Shown here piece after piece: positions 8,087 through 28,339 of a DNA stretch of 64,000 nucleotides. A model generated the notes under the pieces. The model saw only the letters and a list, made by a program, of their open reading frames with translations, was not told where the DNA came from and did not search any database. Both the position numbers and the translations under genes were made by a program. Origin of the DNA: Turneriella parva DSM 21527 (GTDB lineage Bacteria; Spirochaetota; Leptospiria; Turneriellales; Turneriellaceae); NCBI RefSeq assembly GCF_000266885.1, contig NC_018020.1, positions 1,364,001 to 1,428,000 of the forward strand, given 5' to 3'. The number at the start of each line of letters is the position of its first letter. Position 1 is the first letter of the stretch.

Positions 8087-8413
8087 CTGCTAGCAGTTTT
8101 CACACTGTTGTTTATATAATATAATATATATCTTAAATTATACAATAACAATAACCGTGTGGATATGTGGAAAACGCCTAAAACCCTTGTAAATATTATG
8201 TCTCCTCATATTTATCGATGAACTTTTTTGACATCTTACCCTGCAAGGCTCAACATGCTTGCTTAGCAGGCTCAAGAAATGTGCACGACTGTGGAATATT
8301 GCGGCCAGATTGTGAATAACCACGAATACGTGGGTTTTTGATTTATCTGCAACTTTCTGACCCATTGCGCAAAAGTGCTTTTCAGCCACTCGGCTGCTCC
8401 ATGCGCTGATTTT
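8087..8413. other. Intergenic region with AT-rich tract and DnaA-box-like 9-mers
   Basis: A 327-base stretch without a gene. Bases 8108-8154 are almost pure A+T. Next to it are TGTGGATAT (8158-8166) and TGTGGAAAA (8166-8174), and further on TGTGGAATA (8290-8298) and TGTGAATAA (8311-8319). The second and fourth match the reverse complement of the DnaA box TTWTNCACA, and the others differ by one base. The region should also hold the promoters of the split hydrolase (minus) and the DsbA-like gene (plus), but no clear promoter was recognised. Confidence 0.35.
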
Positions 8414-9433
8414 ATGAAGAAATTTCTTACGGTTCTCGCTTTGGTTCTGAGTGTTTCAACCAGCACCCTTTGCGGCGGGGCCAATGAAACCATAGCAACA
8501 TTTGATGGCGGCAACGTCACCACGAAAGATGTTGAAAAAAACAACGAGCAAGAATTCTACGAAATTCGCCAGAAAGAGTTTCAGATTCGCCAGCAGGCCG
8601 CATTTGAAACCGCGCGCGAAAAAATCTTCGAAGCCGAAGCTAAAAAGCGCAATCTACCGGTAGACAAGTTTGTCGAAACCGAACTGGCTAAGCGGCGCGG
8701 CAACGTGACCGACGAAATGATACGCCAGTTCTACGAAAATAATAAACAGCGTATCAATCAGCCTTTCGCAATCGTGCGCGACCGCATTCGCCAGCAGCTG
8801 ATTAATAACTCTGAAAAAGGCGCCCGCGACGGATTAACCTCTGAACTGTTTAAAGCATACAATTTCAAGTTTAACCTGCAAGAACCGAAACCACCGACAC
8901 TGACAATCGTTAACGACGGCAAACCGTTCTGGGGTAAAGCTGATGCAAAGGTTGTCATTACTGAATTTTCAGACTTTGAATGTCCCTATTGCCGCCAGAT
9001 GCAGGGTGACGTGCAGCGCCTTAAAGCCGAATATTCCGGTAAAATCAAATGGGTGTTCCGCAACTTTCCGCTCGACTTTCACCCACAGGCAATGCCGTCT
9101 CATATCGCCGCGCAGTGTGCAGGCAAACAGGCGAAATATTTTGAGTTTCAGACGAAGGTTTTTTCGATACCTTACAACGGCCGAGAACTCGATATGTCGC
9201 CGGCACAGCTCGACCGCATAGCGCAGAGCATCGGCCTCAATATGCAGGCCTACACACAATGTAAGGCCGACAAAGACGGCAAAGAGCGTGAGGCAATTGA
9301 AGCCGATATGCGTTATGCGCAAAAGATAGGTGTCAGGGGAACTCCCACTATCTACATCAACGGCGTTCTCTATCAGCAAGAACGTTCGTACGAAGCGATG
9401 AAGCAGGCAATCGACAAGCTGCTTGATTCGTGA
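8414..9433 (+). CDS. Exported DsbA-like thiol oxidoreductase with SurA-like N-terminal region
   Basis: A 339-residue exported protein. The ATG at 8414 opens a signal peptide (MKKFLTVLALVLSVSTSTLC); an upstream GTG at 8375 would hide it. Residues about 25-160 begin IATFDGGNVTTKDVEKN and are rich in charged helices, resembling the N-terminal chaperone segment of SurA-type foldases but without a PPIase domain. The C-terminal half is a DsbA/Thioredoxin_4 domain with the active site CPYC in FSDFECPYCRQM and the cis-proline loop VRGTPTIYING. It probably oxidises or isomerises disulfides in the periplasm. A Cys lies near the cleavage site, but the flanking residues are a poor lipobox. Confidence 0.87.
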   Translation: MKKFLTVLALVLSVSTSTLCGGANETIATFDGGNVTTKDVEKNNEQEFYEIRQKEFQIRQQAAFETAREKIFEAEAKKRNLPVDKFVETELAKRRGNVTDEMIRQFYENNKQRINQPFAIVRDRIRQQLINNSEKGARDGLTSELFKAYNFKFNLQEPKPPTLTIVNDGKPFWGKADAKVVITEFSDFECPYCRQMQGDVQRLKAEYSGKIKWVFRNFPLDFHPQAMPSHIAAQCAGKQAKYFEFQTKVFSIPYNGRELDMSPAQLDRIAQSIGLNMQAYTQCKADKDGKEREAIEADMRYAQKIGVRGTPTIYINGVLYQQERSYEAMKQAIDKLLDS

Positions 9434-22315: not shown

Positions 22316-22942
22316 ATGATGCGTTCTCTGCGATTGCTGTTCTGTTTCGCTTTTGTTGCCACCGCCGTGCATGCGGGCGAGGGCCTCGAATACATGCAGA
22401 ACATAATCAATAGTTTTGAACAGCTGCGCGGCGAACTTGCTGAAGACTTCTCAGCAGAGAAGCGTAAAGATGTTTCGGCGCGTGCACGCGACCTGGCGTT
22501 GCAGATTCTCGACATTAAAGAAATCGGCAAACTTGCGCTCGGTTCGTATTTCAACAAGCTCAACCCCAAACAACAAGAAGACTTTCTGGGCTTGTTTCAC
22601 GAGCTGATGGCAAATCGCGTAGTTGAGGCTAATATTCCCTCGCAAAAGGTAATTACCGGTAAGATACCCATTGAGATAATTTCAGAGCGCGTCGAGACCG
22701 ATGACACCTTTGGCAAAGAAGCGTTGATTGTGAACACGAAAGTGCCGCATCGCAAACAAAGCTTTAAGGTGGAGTTCTATTTATACCGGTCAGACGACGG
22801 TCTGAAACTCTACGATGTGCACATCGACGAGGCTTCTACCCTGCTCGACTTTCGCAACCAGTTCTCATCGATCATCAAGAAAAAGGGTTACAAACACCTG
22901 GTGAAGTTATTGCGTGAACGTATTCAGCGCATCAATAAGTAG
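22316..22942 (+). CDS. MlaC/Ttg2D-like lipid-binding protein
   Basis: A 208-residue exported protein with a signal peptide (MMRSLRLLFCFAFVATAVHA) and the MlaC (toluene tolerance Ttg2) pattern: DIKEIGKLALGSYFNKLNPKQQEDFLGLF, VNTKVPHRKQSFKVEFYLYRSDDGLKLYDVHIDE, and FRNQFSSIIKKKGYKHLVKLL. MlaC carries phospholipids between membranes as part of an ABC system. No mlaDEF genes are nearby, so its partners must be elsewhere. The downstream TolC-like gene overlaps it by 29 bases. Confidence 0.88.
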   Translation: MMRSLRLLFCFAFVATAVHAGEGLEYMQNIINSFEQLRGELAEDFSAEKRKDVSARARDLALQILDIKEIGKLALGSYFNKLNPKQQEDFLGLFHELMANRVVEANIPSQKVITGKIPIEIISERVETDDTFGKEALIVNTKVPHRKQSFKVEFYLYRSDDGLKLYDVHIDEASTLLDFRNQFSSIIKKKGYKHLVKLLRERIQRINK

Positions 22943-24272
22943 ATTCGGCGCAGCAGCGCTCGCGCTGTCAGCTGTTGCTTTCATACCGCTTCACGCAGAG
23001 AAGCCGATTCGTTTCAGCGAAGGGCTGACCCAGCTCTTAAAGAACAACGCCAAGATTCTGGAGAGCAAGGCGCAGATTCTCAGCTATTCGGCTTACCAGA
23101 CCGAAGCCTCGGCGATGGATTATCCGACGCTATCGCTTTTAACCTTTGTGGCGCCGATTTTTGAGTCGCGCGGCAACGCCGCCGCAAGCCAAGATAACTT
23201 CAACAAGTGGGGGCCGTACATTCGCGGCGAGCTCACGGTGGTTTACCCCGTCTTCAGTTTTGGGCGCATCGCCGACGCGAAACAGGCAGCGGCCTCTGCC
23301 GTCGAAGGGGCGCGGCAGTTGCATGAAAGCCAGATCAACAAAAGTATATTCGATTACAAGCAGTTGTACCTGCAGATTATTCTGCTGAACCGTTACAAAG
23401 CGGTTCTCGACGATGCAGGCGAAAAGATGCGCGCTGTTTTGTCGCGTGCTGAAAAATTGTATAAGAAGGGCACCGGTGAGGTACAACGCAAAGACCTCAC
23501 GAGGCTGAAACTCTTCGCGCTCGAGCTTGAACGTTTTGGCGCCGAGTGGCTCGCCAACAAGAAGAGCGCCGGGCTCGCGCTGGGGCATTTTCTCGGCGAG
23601 CGCGAATCGTTGCTCGTGCTCGAACAGGATTTTCCGCGTATCGAAGATGCGACGCGCAGCCTTGAGGCTCTTATCGCCGAAAGTCAGGAAAAAAATCCGG
23701 AACTCAAGGCGGTCGCTGCGGGTTTACGGGCCAGGCGGCACCAGGTAGAAATGGAAAAAGGTGGATATCTGCCCGTGCTGTTTCTCGCGGGCCGTTCTGA
23801 AATCAACTACACTGACCTGCGCGATTCTCAGCAGAGTTCGTATGCATTCGACCCCTTTAACCGAAACTGGTTTGCCGTCGTGTTCGGTGCCAAGTGGGAT
23901 ATCGACTTCGGCAACACAAAGGCCAAGGTACAGCGGGCGCAGGCCGAGCTCGAGAAGATGCAGGCCAAACAGAGCGAGGCGCTCACGGGTCTGCCGCTCA
24001 AGGTCGCCATGGCCATGTGGGAATTCGAAAAGTTTAAATTTCAATCCGAGATTGTGCAGTCTAAATATAAAGAAGCAAATAAATGGGCTCTGTCTGAGAT
24101 GACCGCCTATACGACGGGCACCGGCAGCGCCAAAGATCTGATCGAGGCGCTCGGTGCACAGCTGATGACTGAAAAAGAATCAGCCGAAATGGAGTATAAT
24201 CTTTGCCTCGCGGCGGCAAAGTTGGCGATGGAAATCGGCGATCAAAATACTCTAGGCCAGTGGCGGGAATAA
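22914..24272 (+). CDS. TolC-family outer-membrane efflux protein
   Basis: A 452-residue protein with a signal peptide and the TolC/OEP architecture: long coiled-coil helices rich in Ala, Gln and Lys with a repeated half (about residues 35-215 and 245-440). Features include GPYIRGELTVVYPVFSFGRIADAKQA and WDIDFGNTKAKVQRAQAELEKM, the usual strand-to-helix transitions. It would form a trimeric channel for a transporter whose inner-membrane parts are not here. The GTG start at 22914 overlaps the mlaC-like gene. Confidence 0.87.
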   Translation: MNVFSASISRFGAAALALSAVAFIPLHAEKPIRFSEGLTQLLKNNAKILESKAQILSYSAYQTEASAMDYPTLSLLTFVAPIFESRGNAAASQDNFNKWGPYIRGELTVVYPVFSFGRIADAKQAAASAVEGARQLHESQINKSIFDYKQLYLQIILLNRYKAVLDDAGEKMRAVLSRAEKLYKKGTGEVQRKDLTRLKLFALELERFGAEWLANKKSAGLALGHFLGERESLLVLEQDFPRIEDATRSLEALIAESQEKNPELKAVAAGLRARRHQVEMEKGGYLPVLFLAGRSEINYTDLRDSQQSSYAFDPFNRNWFAVVFGAKWDIDFGNTKAKVQRAQAELEKMQAKQSEALTGLPLKVAMAMWEFEKFKFQSEIVQSKYKEANKWALSEMTAYTTGTGSAKDLIEALGAQLMTEKESAEMEYNLCLAAAKLAMEIGDQNTLGQWRE

Positions 24273-24311
24273 AAAGCTGATTCGGCAGCGCGGGTAGACA
24301 TTAGAGTTATC

Positions 24312-25877
24312 ATGAAGAAGGCGAAATTTCTTATCGGTTTGGCGTTGGTGCTATCGGCAGGTAACTCGGGTGCGTTCGCGAAAAGCAAAGAACTGATTCT
24401 CGGCGAAAAGGCATATTCGCGCGGCTCGTTCGATGCGGCGAAGCAGCATTTCGAACAGGCAATCGATAACGGCGATGAATCGGGTGACCCGAGACTTTAT
24501 ATCGGCCTCATTCTCGAATCGCGCCGACAATACGCAGAGAGTATTCCGTACTTTCGCGCTGCGGCGGAGCGGCCGATGCAAAAGAAATTCAAAAAGGTCG
24601 CTTATTGGAAACTAGCTATTCTCTACCGGCAGGCAAAGCAGTATCCCGAATCACTGCGCTATGTCGAAAGGCTTGAAGAACTCGGTGAGAAAAGCGAACT
24701 CTTCGAAAAAATTCGTATGGAAGCTGAAGGGCACCATGGCGGAGGCAGTTCAAAAGGGTATTCAGACGTCAAAAAGGCTGTGGTGCTTGAGAAACAGTAC
24801 AGGGAGAAATCCTCACAAGGCGCTGAAGCAGGTGAGTTGTGCGAAATCGCAGATTCGATCATCGCAGCTTACACCGCGGCGATAGCGGCAGACCCCCGCT
24901 GGAAAGAATACCGTTTTAAGATTGCGCTTTACCACGAACGCTGCAAGCGCATGGGCGAAGCTGAGCGCGTTTACGCCCAAATCTGGGATGAAGCACGTGA
25001 CCCGGCAGCAGCTTACAAGCTTGGTCTTTTGGCGCGCAAGCGCAAAGATTACAAGTTGGCGCTGAAGTTCTTCGGCGGAGCGCTGGAGAACCCGCCTGAA
25101 GATCTGCAGATGCGTTTCTATATTCATTATAACGCAGCTCAGGCACATTATGCGTTGGGCAACCTTGCTGAAGCATACGCACACGCCAGGCCGGCGCGCC
25201 GTCTGTCGGGTGAAATCGAGCTGAAGAAAAAGACGCAGCAGGCGCTGCGCAGACTCTATTGTCTCGCGAAAATTTCGAAACGGATTCACGAAGAAGACTA
25301 TTGCCGGTTCTCTCAGAAGACAGAAAGCAAGATGTTCATGAGCCTCTATGCGATGAAACGCGCGCTCGCGGAGAACAACAGCGCAGAAGCTGCGCAGCAC
25401 GCCGTGCAGATATATGCGGGCGATACCGTAGACGATGACGAATCGGGTGCAAGTCTACCAGCTTATGCCCTGTCAGATCTGCCGGTGGCTGTGGGTGTTC
25501 TGTTTAAAGAAGAAAAGTATCGTGCCGTCATCGAGCTCACATCAAAATTCAAGACGCAGCTTCAAGATCTGAAAGACACCAATGGCTGGCGCGCAGTTTC
25601 GCATTTTGCCCTAAAAGAATATGGTTCAGCTCTGGTTGAGTTTGACAAGATCAAGAACCCATCGCCGTCGCAGATGAATTTGCACCTCATGGCGATGGCG
25701 CATATGGGCGACATTGCAGGCATAAAGAGCAGGGGTAGAGTCTATCTGAAAGACCCGCGCGCCCGCAAGAAACTCACGGAGAATTTTCGCAAGATGCGGC
25801 TATATGAATCACTGCGCCGCGAACCTGATTTTGAAATCTGGTTGAACGAAGGTGCGGGCGCCTCATTGCCCGAATAG
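24312..25877 (+). CDS. Exported tetratricopeptide-repeat protein
   Basis: A 521-residue protein with a signal peptide (MKKAKFLIGLALVLSAGNSGAFA). At least six TPR-like helix pairs follow, for example LILGEKAYSRGSFDAAKQHFEQAIDNG, YAESIPYFRAAAERP, and KLGLLARKRKDYKLALKFFGGALENPP. These form a superhelix for protein binding. It may be a scaffold in envelope assembly with the TolC-like protein upstream, but no partner can be named. It converges on the kamA gene with a two-base gap. Confidence 0.8.
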   Translation: MKKAKFLIGLALVLSAGNSGAFAKSKELILGEKAYSRGSFDAAKQHFEQAIDNGDESGDPRLYIGLILESRRQYAESIPYFRAAAERPMQKKFKKVAYWKLAILYRQAKQYPESLRYVERLEELGEKSELFEKIRMEAEGHHGGGSSKGYSDVKKAVVLEKQYREKSSQGAEAGELCEIADSIIAAYTAAIAADPRWKEYRFKIALYHERCKRMGEAERVYAQIWDEARDPAAAYKLGLLARKRKDYKLALKFFGGALENPPEDLQMRFYIHYNAAQAHYALGNLAEAYAHARPARRLSGEIELKKKTQQALRRLYCLAKISKRIHEEDYCRFSQKTESKMFMSLYAMKRALAENNSAEAAQHAVQIYAGDTVDDDESGASLPAYALSDLPVAVGVLFKEEKYRAVIELTSKFKTQLQDLKDTNGWRAVSHFALKEYGSALVEFDKIKNPSPSQMNLHLMAMAHMGDIAGIKSRGRVYLKDPRARKKLTENFRKMRLYESLRREPDFEIWLNEGAGASLPE

Positions 25878-25879
25878 AT

Positions 25880-26809
25880 TCAGCACATTGGCTTTTTGCC
25901 CTGCTTCGAGTCTTTCACAAAAGCGGGCAGCATGTACCGCGGAATCAGAGTCTTGAGTTCGCTGTAAATGCGCATTGCTTCTGCATCGGTCACCTCGAAG
26001 TGAGCGGAGCCGGTGACGCGATCGAGTTGATGCAGATAATAGGGCTGAATTCCGGCGTGGTGAAGAGCATCGCAAAGAGCGGCTAGACTTGTGGCATTGT
26101 CGTTGACTTCGCGCAGCAAAACCGATTGTGAATAACAGGCAATACCCAACGCACGCAGATTCTGAACGGCGGCGCGCGCCGAGTCGCTGATTTCAGCCGA
26201 CGTGTTGATGTGCAGCACAAATGCAATCGTCTTCTGCTTAAAGTTGCCGATTAGTTCTGCAAGGGCGTCGAGATAACGCTGGCTTAAGAGCCCTGGTGAT
26301 GTGGTGAGTGCGCGCGTGTGCAGGCGCAAATACCGCACCGAATCGATTTGCAAGAATGTCTGCGCTCGGGCAAGAAAGTCAGACGGGGTTAACATGAGAG
26401 GGTCACCGCCTGAAAAAATGATTTCGTTGATGGCATTGTTGCGGCGCAGGTAATCTGCGATGAGGTCGAGCGCAGTGGGCTGGTGACCTTCAGAGAGCAA
26501 AGTCTTGCGCTTGCGGGTGCAATAGCGGCAATATACCGGGCACTCATCTGTCGTGAGATAGAGCAGCTTGTTCGGGTATTTATGTATGACATCGGCAAAA
26601 GGGTGTATATCGCTGTCATCTTCGCTCAGTGGGTCGTCAGAATACCCGGGCGCATCGACAAGCTCGCGTACATCGGGCGTGAATTGTCTCAAGAGCGCTG
26701 CTGAATCCAGGTCATTGAGAGTAGCGGCGTGTTTTTTGATATGAGGAGCGATACGCGTTCTAAAACGGCGCGAGAGTTCTTGGGTAGACGCAGCTTCGGG
26801 CGCGGTCAT
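25880..26809 (-). CDS. KamA/EpmB-family radical SAM aminomutase
   Basis: A 309-residue radical SAM enzyme with the cluster-binding motif CPVYCRYCTRKRK near residue 90 and the family motifs NEIIFSGGDPLML, LRLHTRALTTSP, and YYLHQLDRVTGSAHFEV. Its short length and lack of the long C-terminal zinc region of true lysine 2,3-aminomutases suggest EpmB, which converts lysine to beta-lysine for elongation factor P. The end of the protein (KDSKQGKKPMC) contains candidate lysines for pyridoxal phosphate. epmA and efp are not nearby. Its start overlaps the stop of the signal-peptidase-like gene by one base. Confidence 0.88.
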   Translation of the reverse strand: MTAPEAASTQELSRRFRTRIAPHIKKHAATLNDLDSAALLRQFTPDVRELVDAPGYSDDPLSEDDSDIHPFADVIHKYPNKLLYLTTDECPVYCRYCTRKRKTLLSEGHQPTALDLIADYLRRNNAINEIIFSGGDPLMLTPSDFLARAQTFLQIDSVRYLRLHTRALTTSPGLLSQRYLDALAELIGNFKQKTIAFVLHINTSAEISDSARAAVQNLRALGIACYSQSVLLREVNDNATSLAALCDALHHAGIQPYYLHQLDRVTGSAHFEVTDAEAMRIYSELKTLIPRYMLPAFVKDSKQGKKPMC

Positions 26810-27351
26810 TAGAACAGTAAGAGCGGCTTGAATACCTTCGCCACAATCTGGTTACGCGAAAAGATACCATGAGCGCGCGAATCATTTGTGTTTAAGTGAT
26901 TGTCGTTCATGCAAAAGATAAAGTTCGGGCGCACTTCTGTTTCAGGCATTTCATAACTCAAATCGCGCGCATCGCTGGTCCGGGGCAAAAGATCGCGCGC
27001 GACTGAGCCGTTGATCTTGAGTTTGCCCTGTGCTATCTGAACGCGGTCGCCGTCTGCAGCCACGATGCGGCAGAGCAGTTCAACATCGGCGCGCGCAGAT
27101 TTGATGAGCACGACATCGCCGCTCACGGGCGTCGACAGCCGTGAATAAACAAAGTAGCGCCGGTCTCCCGGCTTAATTTCGGGCGACATTGCGTCGCTGG
27201 TGACACTCAACGGATAGAAAAACAGTTGGCGCAAGATAAGTTGAATCAAGACTGCAACCGTAACGACGATTAGTGATGCGAGCAGAAGACCACGCCATTT
27301 TTTATTCGAGCCTTTGCCCGATGCCCGATAATGTTCGGCTTTGCGAATCAC
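26809..27351 (-). CDS. Signal peptidase I homologue lacking catalytic Ser and Lys
   Basis: A 180-residue type II membrane protein with one helix (about residues 20-45) and the S26 peptidase fold. The box that normally reads S-x-S-M-x-P-T reads TSDAMSPEI, so the nucleophilic Ser is Ala. The box normally containing Lys (Y-V-K-R-I-I-G-L-P-G-D) reads LLCRIVAADGD, so the general base is Cys. The structural motifs SGDVVLIK, GKLKING and DNHLNTNDSRAHG are conserved. Loss of both catalytic residues with an intact fold suggests a non-proteolytic role such as regulation or binding of pre-proteins. It is coupled to the KamA-family gene. Confidence 0.85.
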   Translation of the reverse strand: MIRKAEHYRASGKGSNKKWRGLLLASLIVVTVAVLIQLILRQLFFYPLSVTSDAMSPEIKPGDRRYFVYSRLSTPVSGDVVLIKSARADVELLCRIVAADGDRVQIAQGKLKINGSVARDLLPRTSDARDLSYEMPETEVRPNFIFCMNDNHLNTNDSRAHGIFSRNQIVAKVFKPLLLF

Positions 27352-27436
27352 CTGCGGGAAATACGGTATTTCAGGCTGCGCGTCAAATCTTTAGCCGTCG
27401 CCCATGCGGCAGGGTTCGCGGAATCGGCAGGTAAGA

Positions 27437-28339
27437 ATGCCAGGCAAAATCTCTCTAAATCTTGGGGGTGGCGCCGCGCGGGGGTTCGCACACGTGGGTG
27501 CAATTCGCGCACTGGTCGAGAACGATATACATTTCGATCTGCTGGTGGGCATCTCAATGGGTTCAATCGTCGGCGGTATCTACAGCGTGATGCCCGATGT
27601 CGACTTTCTCGAAAAGCGGCTGAAGCAGCTCGTGGCATTCGAAGCGTTCAAGAACTCCGTGGTGGGCACCTGGACTACAAATCAAGATCCGAATTCCAAA
27701 GGTTTTGTGCATCGTGCGCAAAAGCTTTTCGCCGGTACGAATATCTTGCGGCGAATCTTCACCGCCCCGGGTGTTCTTACTCCTTCAGATGTGCAGAGCG
27801 TTATGTACCCGTTTATCGCCGACGTTACGTTTAACGCGACGGCAATACCCTTTGCCACCGCCGCTGTCAATATTCGCAACGGTGAGCTGCGCGTCTTTCA
27901 GGGTTCAGACCGGCTGCGCGATGCAGTCATCGCATCGGCTTCGATGCCGCTGATATTTCCCCCTGAGCGCATCGGCAAAGAGTGGTATGTCGACGGCGGG
28001 GTTCTCGACAAACTCGGCATCGAGACGGCTGAGCGTTTGGGTGCGACGAGGTTCATCGTGGTCGATGTGTCAGACGAAAAATTACCCGACAATATTCCGC
28101 GCAGCGGATTCGATGTGATGCTCAAGACAGAAGAAATCGCGTCTGAGCACCGGCGTATAATACAGCTGCAGAAGGCCAATCTGGTTGTGCGCCCGATTCG
28201 CGGCAACTACCACTGGGCCGATTATTCGGCCGCCGATGAATTCATCGCTATGGGTTATGAGGCAACAATGGAACAGATCGGCGAGATCAGGTCGATAGCA
28301 GCGAATCGCCGCCTTTTCGGTTTTCTCTCGCGCTCCTGA
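27437..28339 (+). CDS. Patatin-like phospholipase
   Basis: A 300-residue RssA-type patatin. The oxyanion motif GGGAARGFAHVG, the nucleophile motif GISMGS and the catalytic Asp in VDGGV are all present, so the Ser-Asp dyad is complete. Such enzymes hydrolyse acyl esters of phospholipids. The start at 27437 follows an AGGTAAG-like ribosome site and gives the family's N-terminus (KISLNLGGG). The C-terminal end (DYSAADEFIAMGYEATMEQIGEI) matches RssA proteins. It is divergent from the signal-peptidase-like gene. Confidence 0.93.
   Translation: MPGKISLNLGGGAARGFAHVGAIRALVENDIHFDLLVGISMGSIVGGIYSVMPDVDFLEKRLKQLVAFEAFKNSVVGTWTTNQDPNSKGFVHRAQKLFAGTNILRRIFTAPGVLTPSDVQSVMYPFIADVTFNATAIPFATAAVNIRNGELRVFQGSDRLRDAVIASASMPLIFPPERIGKEWYVDGGVLDKLGIETAERLGATRFIVVDVSDEKLPDNIPRSGFDVMLKTEEIASEHRRIIQLQKANLVVRPIRGNYHWADYSAADEFIAMGYEATMEQIGEIRSIAANRRLFGFLSRS

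What the first reader, a model, noticed from the sequence alone, without database searches (positions are those of the whole stretch)
26809..27351. Signal peptidase I homologue without its catalytic Ser and Lys
The SxSMxPT box reads TSDAMSPEI (Ser to Ala) and the KRxxGxPGD box reads LCRIVAADGD (Lys to Cys), yet the structural motifs DNHLNTNDSR, GDVVLIK and GKLKING are conserved. Both active residues are lost while the fold is kept and the frame is intact, which suggests selection for another function. It is coupled to a KamA-family gene.
Basis: partly seen in the sequence, partly recalled or inferred. Interest (0 to 1): 0.6.

Follow-up and report, generated by a model that had tools for sequence, protein, structure and literature searches.

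The report
Signal peptidase look-alike without catalytic residues
This bacterium, like most of its relatives, keeps a second copy of the enzyme that clips export tags off proteins, but the cutting residues are gone, and in its own order two conserved cysteines sit at and beside the old cutting site, so the protein probably binds exported proteins rather than cutting them.

Summary
Window 26809-27351 (-) encodes an intact 180-aa type I signal peptidase homologue (Peptidase_S26, E 4e-24) in Turneriella parva. The catalytic Ser is Ala54 and the catalytic Lys is Cys94; the alignment is ungapped around both boxes. The two losses differ in age. Ser-to-Ala is recent: the closest relative shares it, while 9 of 17 orthologues, four congeners among them, keep Ser. 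Lys loss is old: Cys stands there in all 17 full-length orthologues of the order, always with a second Cys (Cys147) in box E. Lys-less members occur in 42 of 48 genomes of the class. Gly272 and Ser278, which accommodate and stabilise Lys145 in E. coli LepB, are lost with it, while the structural D-S-R motif is kept. Short paralogues in other spirochaetes are mixed: 19 with Lys, 22 without. The top structural match is SipA, a known inactive signal peptidase homologue. I infer a membrane-anchored, non-catalytic peptide-binding protein, probably braced by a disulphide. Function and disulphide are untested. The downstream EpmB-like gene is a conserved neighbour only in this order.

The parts
26809..27351 (-). 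pseudo-signal-peptidase ORF, 180 aa (GTG start, TAA stop)
   Evidence: orthologues
27223..27291 (-). single N-terminal membrane helix (about residues 21-43) after a Lys/Arg-rich tail; predicts cytoplasmic N-terminus and periplasmic S26 domain
   Evidence: sequence; helix 11-44 in the AlphaFold2 model
27190..27192 (-). Ala54 (GCA) at the catalytic Ser position (E. coli S90) in box B
27070..27072 (-). Cys94 (TGC) at the catalytic Lys position (E. coli K145) in box D; invariant in 17/17 orthologues
26911..26913 (-). Cys147 (TGC) at the E. coli M270 position in box E; invariant in 17/17 orthologues; only other Cys of the protein
26875..26916 (-). box E FCMNDNHLNTNDSR: Gly272 replaced by Asn149, Ser278 by Thr155, D280-S281-R282 kept
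25880..26809 (-). downstream KamA-family radical SAM gene, EpmB-like, 309 aa; its ATG overlaps the ORF's stop (TAATG, 26807-26811); conserved neighbour in families f1, f3, f4 of the order
27404..28339 (+). divergently transcribed patatin-like phospholipase; conserved upstream neighbour in several close relatives (context only)

Best explanation
It is an ancient signal peptidase I pseudoenzyme: a single-span inner-membrane protein whose periplasmic S26 domain keeps its fold and hydrophobic peptide cleft but has lost the general base and its supporting residues. Shown here: homology, loss of Ser and Lys, coupled loss of Gly272 and Ser278, class-wide conservation, and an invariant Cys pair in the order. 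Inferred: no proteolysis; Cys94 and Cys147 form a disulphide in the oxidising periplasm that closes or rigidifies the emptied lysine pocket; the protein works by binding exported polypeptides or partner membrane proteins as an escort or scaffold, much as is proposed for SipA in streptococcal pilus assembly, while the genome's canonical LepB does the cleaving.
For: Pfam and NCBIfam matches. AlphaFold2 model pLDDT 84.9, pTM 0.74. Top second-look structural match is inactive SipA 4n31, Z 16.1, 121 residues, 2.2 A; E. coli and S. aureus SPases Z 13-16. Column statistics: Gly272 57/57 and Ser278 55/57 in Lys-bearing proteins against 1/43 and 2/43 in Lys-less ones, while D280 43/43, S281 43/43 and R282 41/43 stay. 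Cleft-facing positions 86, 91, 95, 144 stay hydrophobic in 93-100% of Lys-less proteins. C94 and C147 are 2 of 9 invariant columns among 17 orthologues. None of 57 Lys-bearing proteins in that set has Cys at 145, 270, 272 or 278. VKOR in 47/48 genomes of the class; in this genome VKOR and DsbA matches lie in one 411-aa frame. dN/dS 0.098. Canonical LepB present. Literature: any side chain at 272 would clash with Lys145, and Ser278 stabilises Lys145 (PMC4049620).
Against: No activity, binding or redox data exist. Nine orthologues keep the Ser, so residual chemistry is not excluded for them. No conserved partner across the class points to a client. The 145/270 Cys pair is confined to one order, so it cannot explain the function of the whole family.
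Confidence: 0.62

Rival explanations
1. Redox-active variant: Cys94/Cys147 switch between dithiol and disulphide and either catalyse thiol-disulphide exchange on exported proteins or gate the peptide cleft.
For: Both Cys strictly conserved while the Ser position varies freely; disulphide machinery present.
Against: No CxxC motif or thioredoxin fold; conservation fits a structural disulphide equally well; the rest of the class lacks this pair.
Confidence: 0.12
2. Regulatory partner of the active LepB: the pseudoenzyme binds LepB or its substrates at the membrane and tunes cleavage (subunit or competitor).
For: Co-resident with a canonical LepB in this genome and most of the class; cleft-lining positions conserved; pseudoproteases often act this way (general knowledge).
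Against: No shared operon with lepB; no evidence of interaction; T. parva LepB lies 2 Mb away.
Confidence: 0.14
3. Still a protease by a different mechanism, with Cys94 as nucleophile or an alternative base activating Ser where Ser is kept.
For: Ser kept in 9 of the 17 orthologues of the order; the fold is that of a protease.
Against: Ser is A, N, Y, R or C in the other 8; Gly272 and Ser278 also lost; Cys94 sits at the buried base position and never occurs without Cys147. From memory, E. coli LepB K145C is inactive (no held paper found).
Confidence: 0.05
4. Decaying gene with no function.
For: Loss of catalytic residues; sequence diverges fast outside the core.
Against: Intact frames in all 17 full-length orthologues, dN/dS about 0.1, class-wide retention and a gene pair kept across three families.
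Confidence: 0.02

Closest known systems
SipA (Spy0127), Streptococcus pyogenes, PDB 4n31 / 4k8w (PMC4049620)
   Same: S26 fold without the Ser-Lys dyad; Gly272 replaced by Asn as here; Ser278 lost; top structural match (Z 16.1).
   Different: Gram-positive pilus gene cluster with Asp/Gly at the dyad positions; here a spirochaete, no pilin or sortase neighbours found, Ala/Cys at the dyad with a paired Cys, found class-wide rather than in one gene cluster.
SpsA, Staphylococcus aureus (PMC12445088)
   Same: Second, dispensable SPase homologue lacking both catalytic residues beside an active SpsB.
   Different: Role unknown; different phylum; a Cys pair was not checked.
LepB, canonical signal peptidase I (E. 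coli; L001 in this genome)
   Same: Fold, boxes B-E, D280/R282; present in the same genome.
   Different: LepB keeps Ser90, Lys145, Gly272 and Ser278 and is larger (L001 ORF 334 aa).
Short second S26 paralogues of other Spirochaetota (L187-L226)
   Same: Same size class; best hits of the family profile; 22 of 41 also lack Lys.
   Different: 19 of 41 keep Lys, usually with Ser, and may be active; none has the 145/270 Cys pair.

Membership tests
Type I signal peptidase (S26), as a homologous family | Peptidase_S26 profile match and S26 beta fold | tested here: met
   PF10502 85.8 bits; predicted fold matches LepB, SpsB and SipA, Z 13-16
Type I signal peptidase, active enzyme | Ser90-Lys145 catalytic dyad | tested here: not met
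   Ala54 and Cys94
Type I signal peptidase, active enzyme | Gly272 and Ser278 around the Lys | tested here: not met
   Asn149 and Thr155
Type I signal peptidase, active enzyme | cleaves signal peptides | not testable with these tools
   needs an assay
SipA-type pilus assembly factor | S26 fold without Ser-Lys dyad | tested here: met
SipA-type pilus assembly factor | encoded with pilin and sortase genes | tested here: not met
   the Pfam-scanned neighbours are radical SAM (KamA), patatin, TPR and OEP genes
Ser-His (archaeal/ER type) signal peptidase | His at the Lys position | tested here: not met
   Cys in 17/17 orthologues; no His in any Lys-less protein of the class
EpmB (neighbour gene) | NCBIfam TIGR03821 above its cut-off | tested here: not met
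   227 bits against cut-off 369; passes KamA family TIGR00238, 213.9 against 199.2; only KamA gene in the genome; EF-P with PGKG present

The most novel reading that the evidence does not exclude
A signal peptidase fold in which the catalytic lysine was replaced by one half of a conserved disulphide, turning a protease into a redox-sensitive or redox-locked escort for exported proteins, within a spirochaete paralogue lineage that lost its lysine repeatedly.
Probability: 0.15. Interest if true: 0.75.

Novelty: new variant of a known kind. Interest (0 to 1): 0.5.

Why it matters
The inactive signal peptidase homologues I could find described are Gram-positive cases (SipA, SpsA). Here one is a near-universal gene of a class that includes Leptospira-type families, so it likely has a standing role in the spirochaete envelope. 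These genes pass the signal peptidase I model and would be annotated as such, which misstates their function. The Cys pair gives a direct, cheap test, and the mixed Lys-bearing/Lys-less paralogues of other spirochaetes offer a natural series for studying how a protease becomes a binding protein.

Tried and rejected
Misalignment or a displaced dyad: rejected, boxes align without gaps and no Ser/Lys pair occupies the sites. Pseudogene: rejected. Phage or mobile origin: no relative in viral contigs for the window family or a Leptospira-type member. KamA coupling as a key to function: not general. Gene neighbourhoods of the other spirochaete paralogues: no common partner. A second Cys pair (272/278) in five other Lys-less proteins was examined; single Cys at 272 or 278 also occur, so pairing there is weaker. 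Tests of independent Lys loss: parsimony needs 5-6 changes, but one clade of all Lys-less proteins was not rejected (p-AU 0.083) and one clade for the class fits well (p-AU 0.86) (thinned set, simple model); the fuller AU test did not finish. The independent-pairs test had only 3 pairs, too few. Papers on this gene in spirochaetes: none found.

Full report
Observation. The ORF at 26809..27351 (-) encodes 180 residues with no internal stop. It belongs to Peptidase_S26 (85.8 bits) and passes the signal peptidase I model TIGR02227 (82.7 against 47 bits). The genome is 4,409,302 bases in two contigs, the exact size published for the Turneriella parva type strain (PMC3746428). It has three S26 genes: a canonical LepB (L001, Ser and Lys present), this one, and a divergent short one (L003).

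Catalytic residues. Aligned with LepB and about 100 other S26 proteins, the Ser position is Ala54 and the Lys position Cys94. The anchors beside them align without gaps. Two further features of the active site are lost: Gly272 is Asn149 and Ser278 is Thr155. In E. coli LepB any side chain at 272 would clash with Lys145, and Ser278 stabilises Lys145; inactive SipA also has Asn at 272 (PMC4049620).

Relatives. Among 61 genomes searched, orthologues fall in all four families f1-f4 of the order: 17 full-length genes plus one cut at a contig end (L012). The Ser position is S in 9, A in 2, Y in 2, C in 2, N in 1 and R in 1; Cys stands at the Lys position in all 17, and a second Cys at the M270 position in all 17. 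Invariant columns are M1, C94, G101, C147, N151, D157, S158, R159, G162. Apart from L005, which shares Ala, the four other full-length congeners (L006-L009) and the next relative, L010 of another genus, keep Ser.

Class and phylum. Lys-less S26 proteins occur in 42 of 48 genomes of the class; of the rest, one has the cut gene, one is a fragmented assembly, and four belong to genus g14. In the first tree 43 Lys-less proteins form one clade (SH-aLRT 90), including one protein from outside the class. Among these 43 the Lys position is C 17, R 11, G 6, A 5, S 3, L 1; Gly272 remains in 1 and Ser278 in 2, against 57/57 and 55/57 in Lys-bearing proteins; D280-S281-R282 is retained. A phylum search and 40 fetched loci show a short S26 paralogue in other spirochaetes, with Lys in 19 of 41 and without in 22. 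Parsimony asks for 5 changes, but a single clade is not excluded, so repeated loss is suggested, not shown.

Selection and fold. dN/dS against L005 is 0.098 with dS 1.40; other pairs are mostly saturated. The AlphaFold2 model (14 sequences) has mean pLDDT 84.9. Foldseek ranks S. aureus SpsB first; the VIA-align second look ranks inactive SipA first (Z 16.1, rmsd 2.2, 121 residues), within one Z unit of SpsB (15.6), so the two are tied. Cleft-facing positions stay hydrophobic (which positions line the cleft is from general knowledge of LepB).

Cys pair. C94 and C147 are the only Cys of the protein, and neither occurs without the other in the set. Published contacts place 271, 272 and 278 around Lys145 (PMC12984324, PMC4049620); contact of Met270 with Lys145 is from memory of the E. 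coli structure. From the Arg146-Met271 bridge, 145 and 270 lie diagonally on one face of neighbouring strands, which permits but does not prove a disulphide. Machinery for disulphides is present: VKOR in 47 of 48 genomes, with VKOR and DsbA matches in one 411-aa frame here.

Context. The stop overlaps the ATG of a KamA-family gene (TAATG). This pairing holds in families f1, f3 and f4; the single f2 contig shows no detectable KamA in the 1.8 kb downstream. The KamA gene is the only one in the genome, EF-P carries PGKG and an EpmA-like gene exists below cut-off, so EpmB function is likely but unproven.

Reading. The simplest account is a non-catalytic, membrane-anchored peptide-binding protein. 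Inactivity is inferred from sequence; SipA, which shares the losses, shows no peptidase activity (PMC4049620). Whether Cys94-Cys147 is structural or redox-active, and what the protein binds, remain open.

Noticed in passing
L187-L226; tree: Short S26 paralogues of other spirochaetes are mixed: 19 of 41 keep the catalytic Lys and 22 have lost it (R, G, S, L, T, V), hinting at repeated conversion to pseudoenzymes.
   Followed up: partly
L026, L032, L138, L139, L140 box E: Five Lys-less proteins from two families carry a different Cys pair, at the Gly272 and Ser278 positions, also next to the former Lys.
   Followed up: partly
L003:1105-1647 (+), own genome C1 4331389-4331931: Third, divergent short S26 protein of T. 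parva with Ser and Lys aligned but a degenerate box D, directly after a 188-aa protein.
   Followed up: no
window 8375-9433 (+): 352-aa ORF overlapping a DSBA-family match (genome C1 1372957-1373412), one of four such matches in the genome.
   Followed up: no
own genome C1 3071025-3072149 (-): VKOR and DsbA matches in one 411-aa open frame, apparently a fused disulphide-forming protein; VKOR occurs in nearly all genomes of the class.
   Followed up: partly
window 22316-25877 (+): Conserved block of a 208-aa protein, an outer-membrane efflux protein (OEP) and a TPR protein, convergent with the KamA gene in several relatives.
   Followed up: no
L123 (G002): A LepB-like protein with Ala at the Ser position but Lys and Gly272 kept: a possible separate inactive copy.
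   Followed up: no
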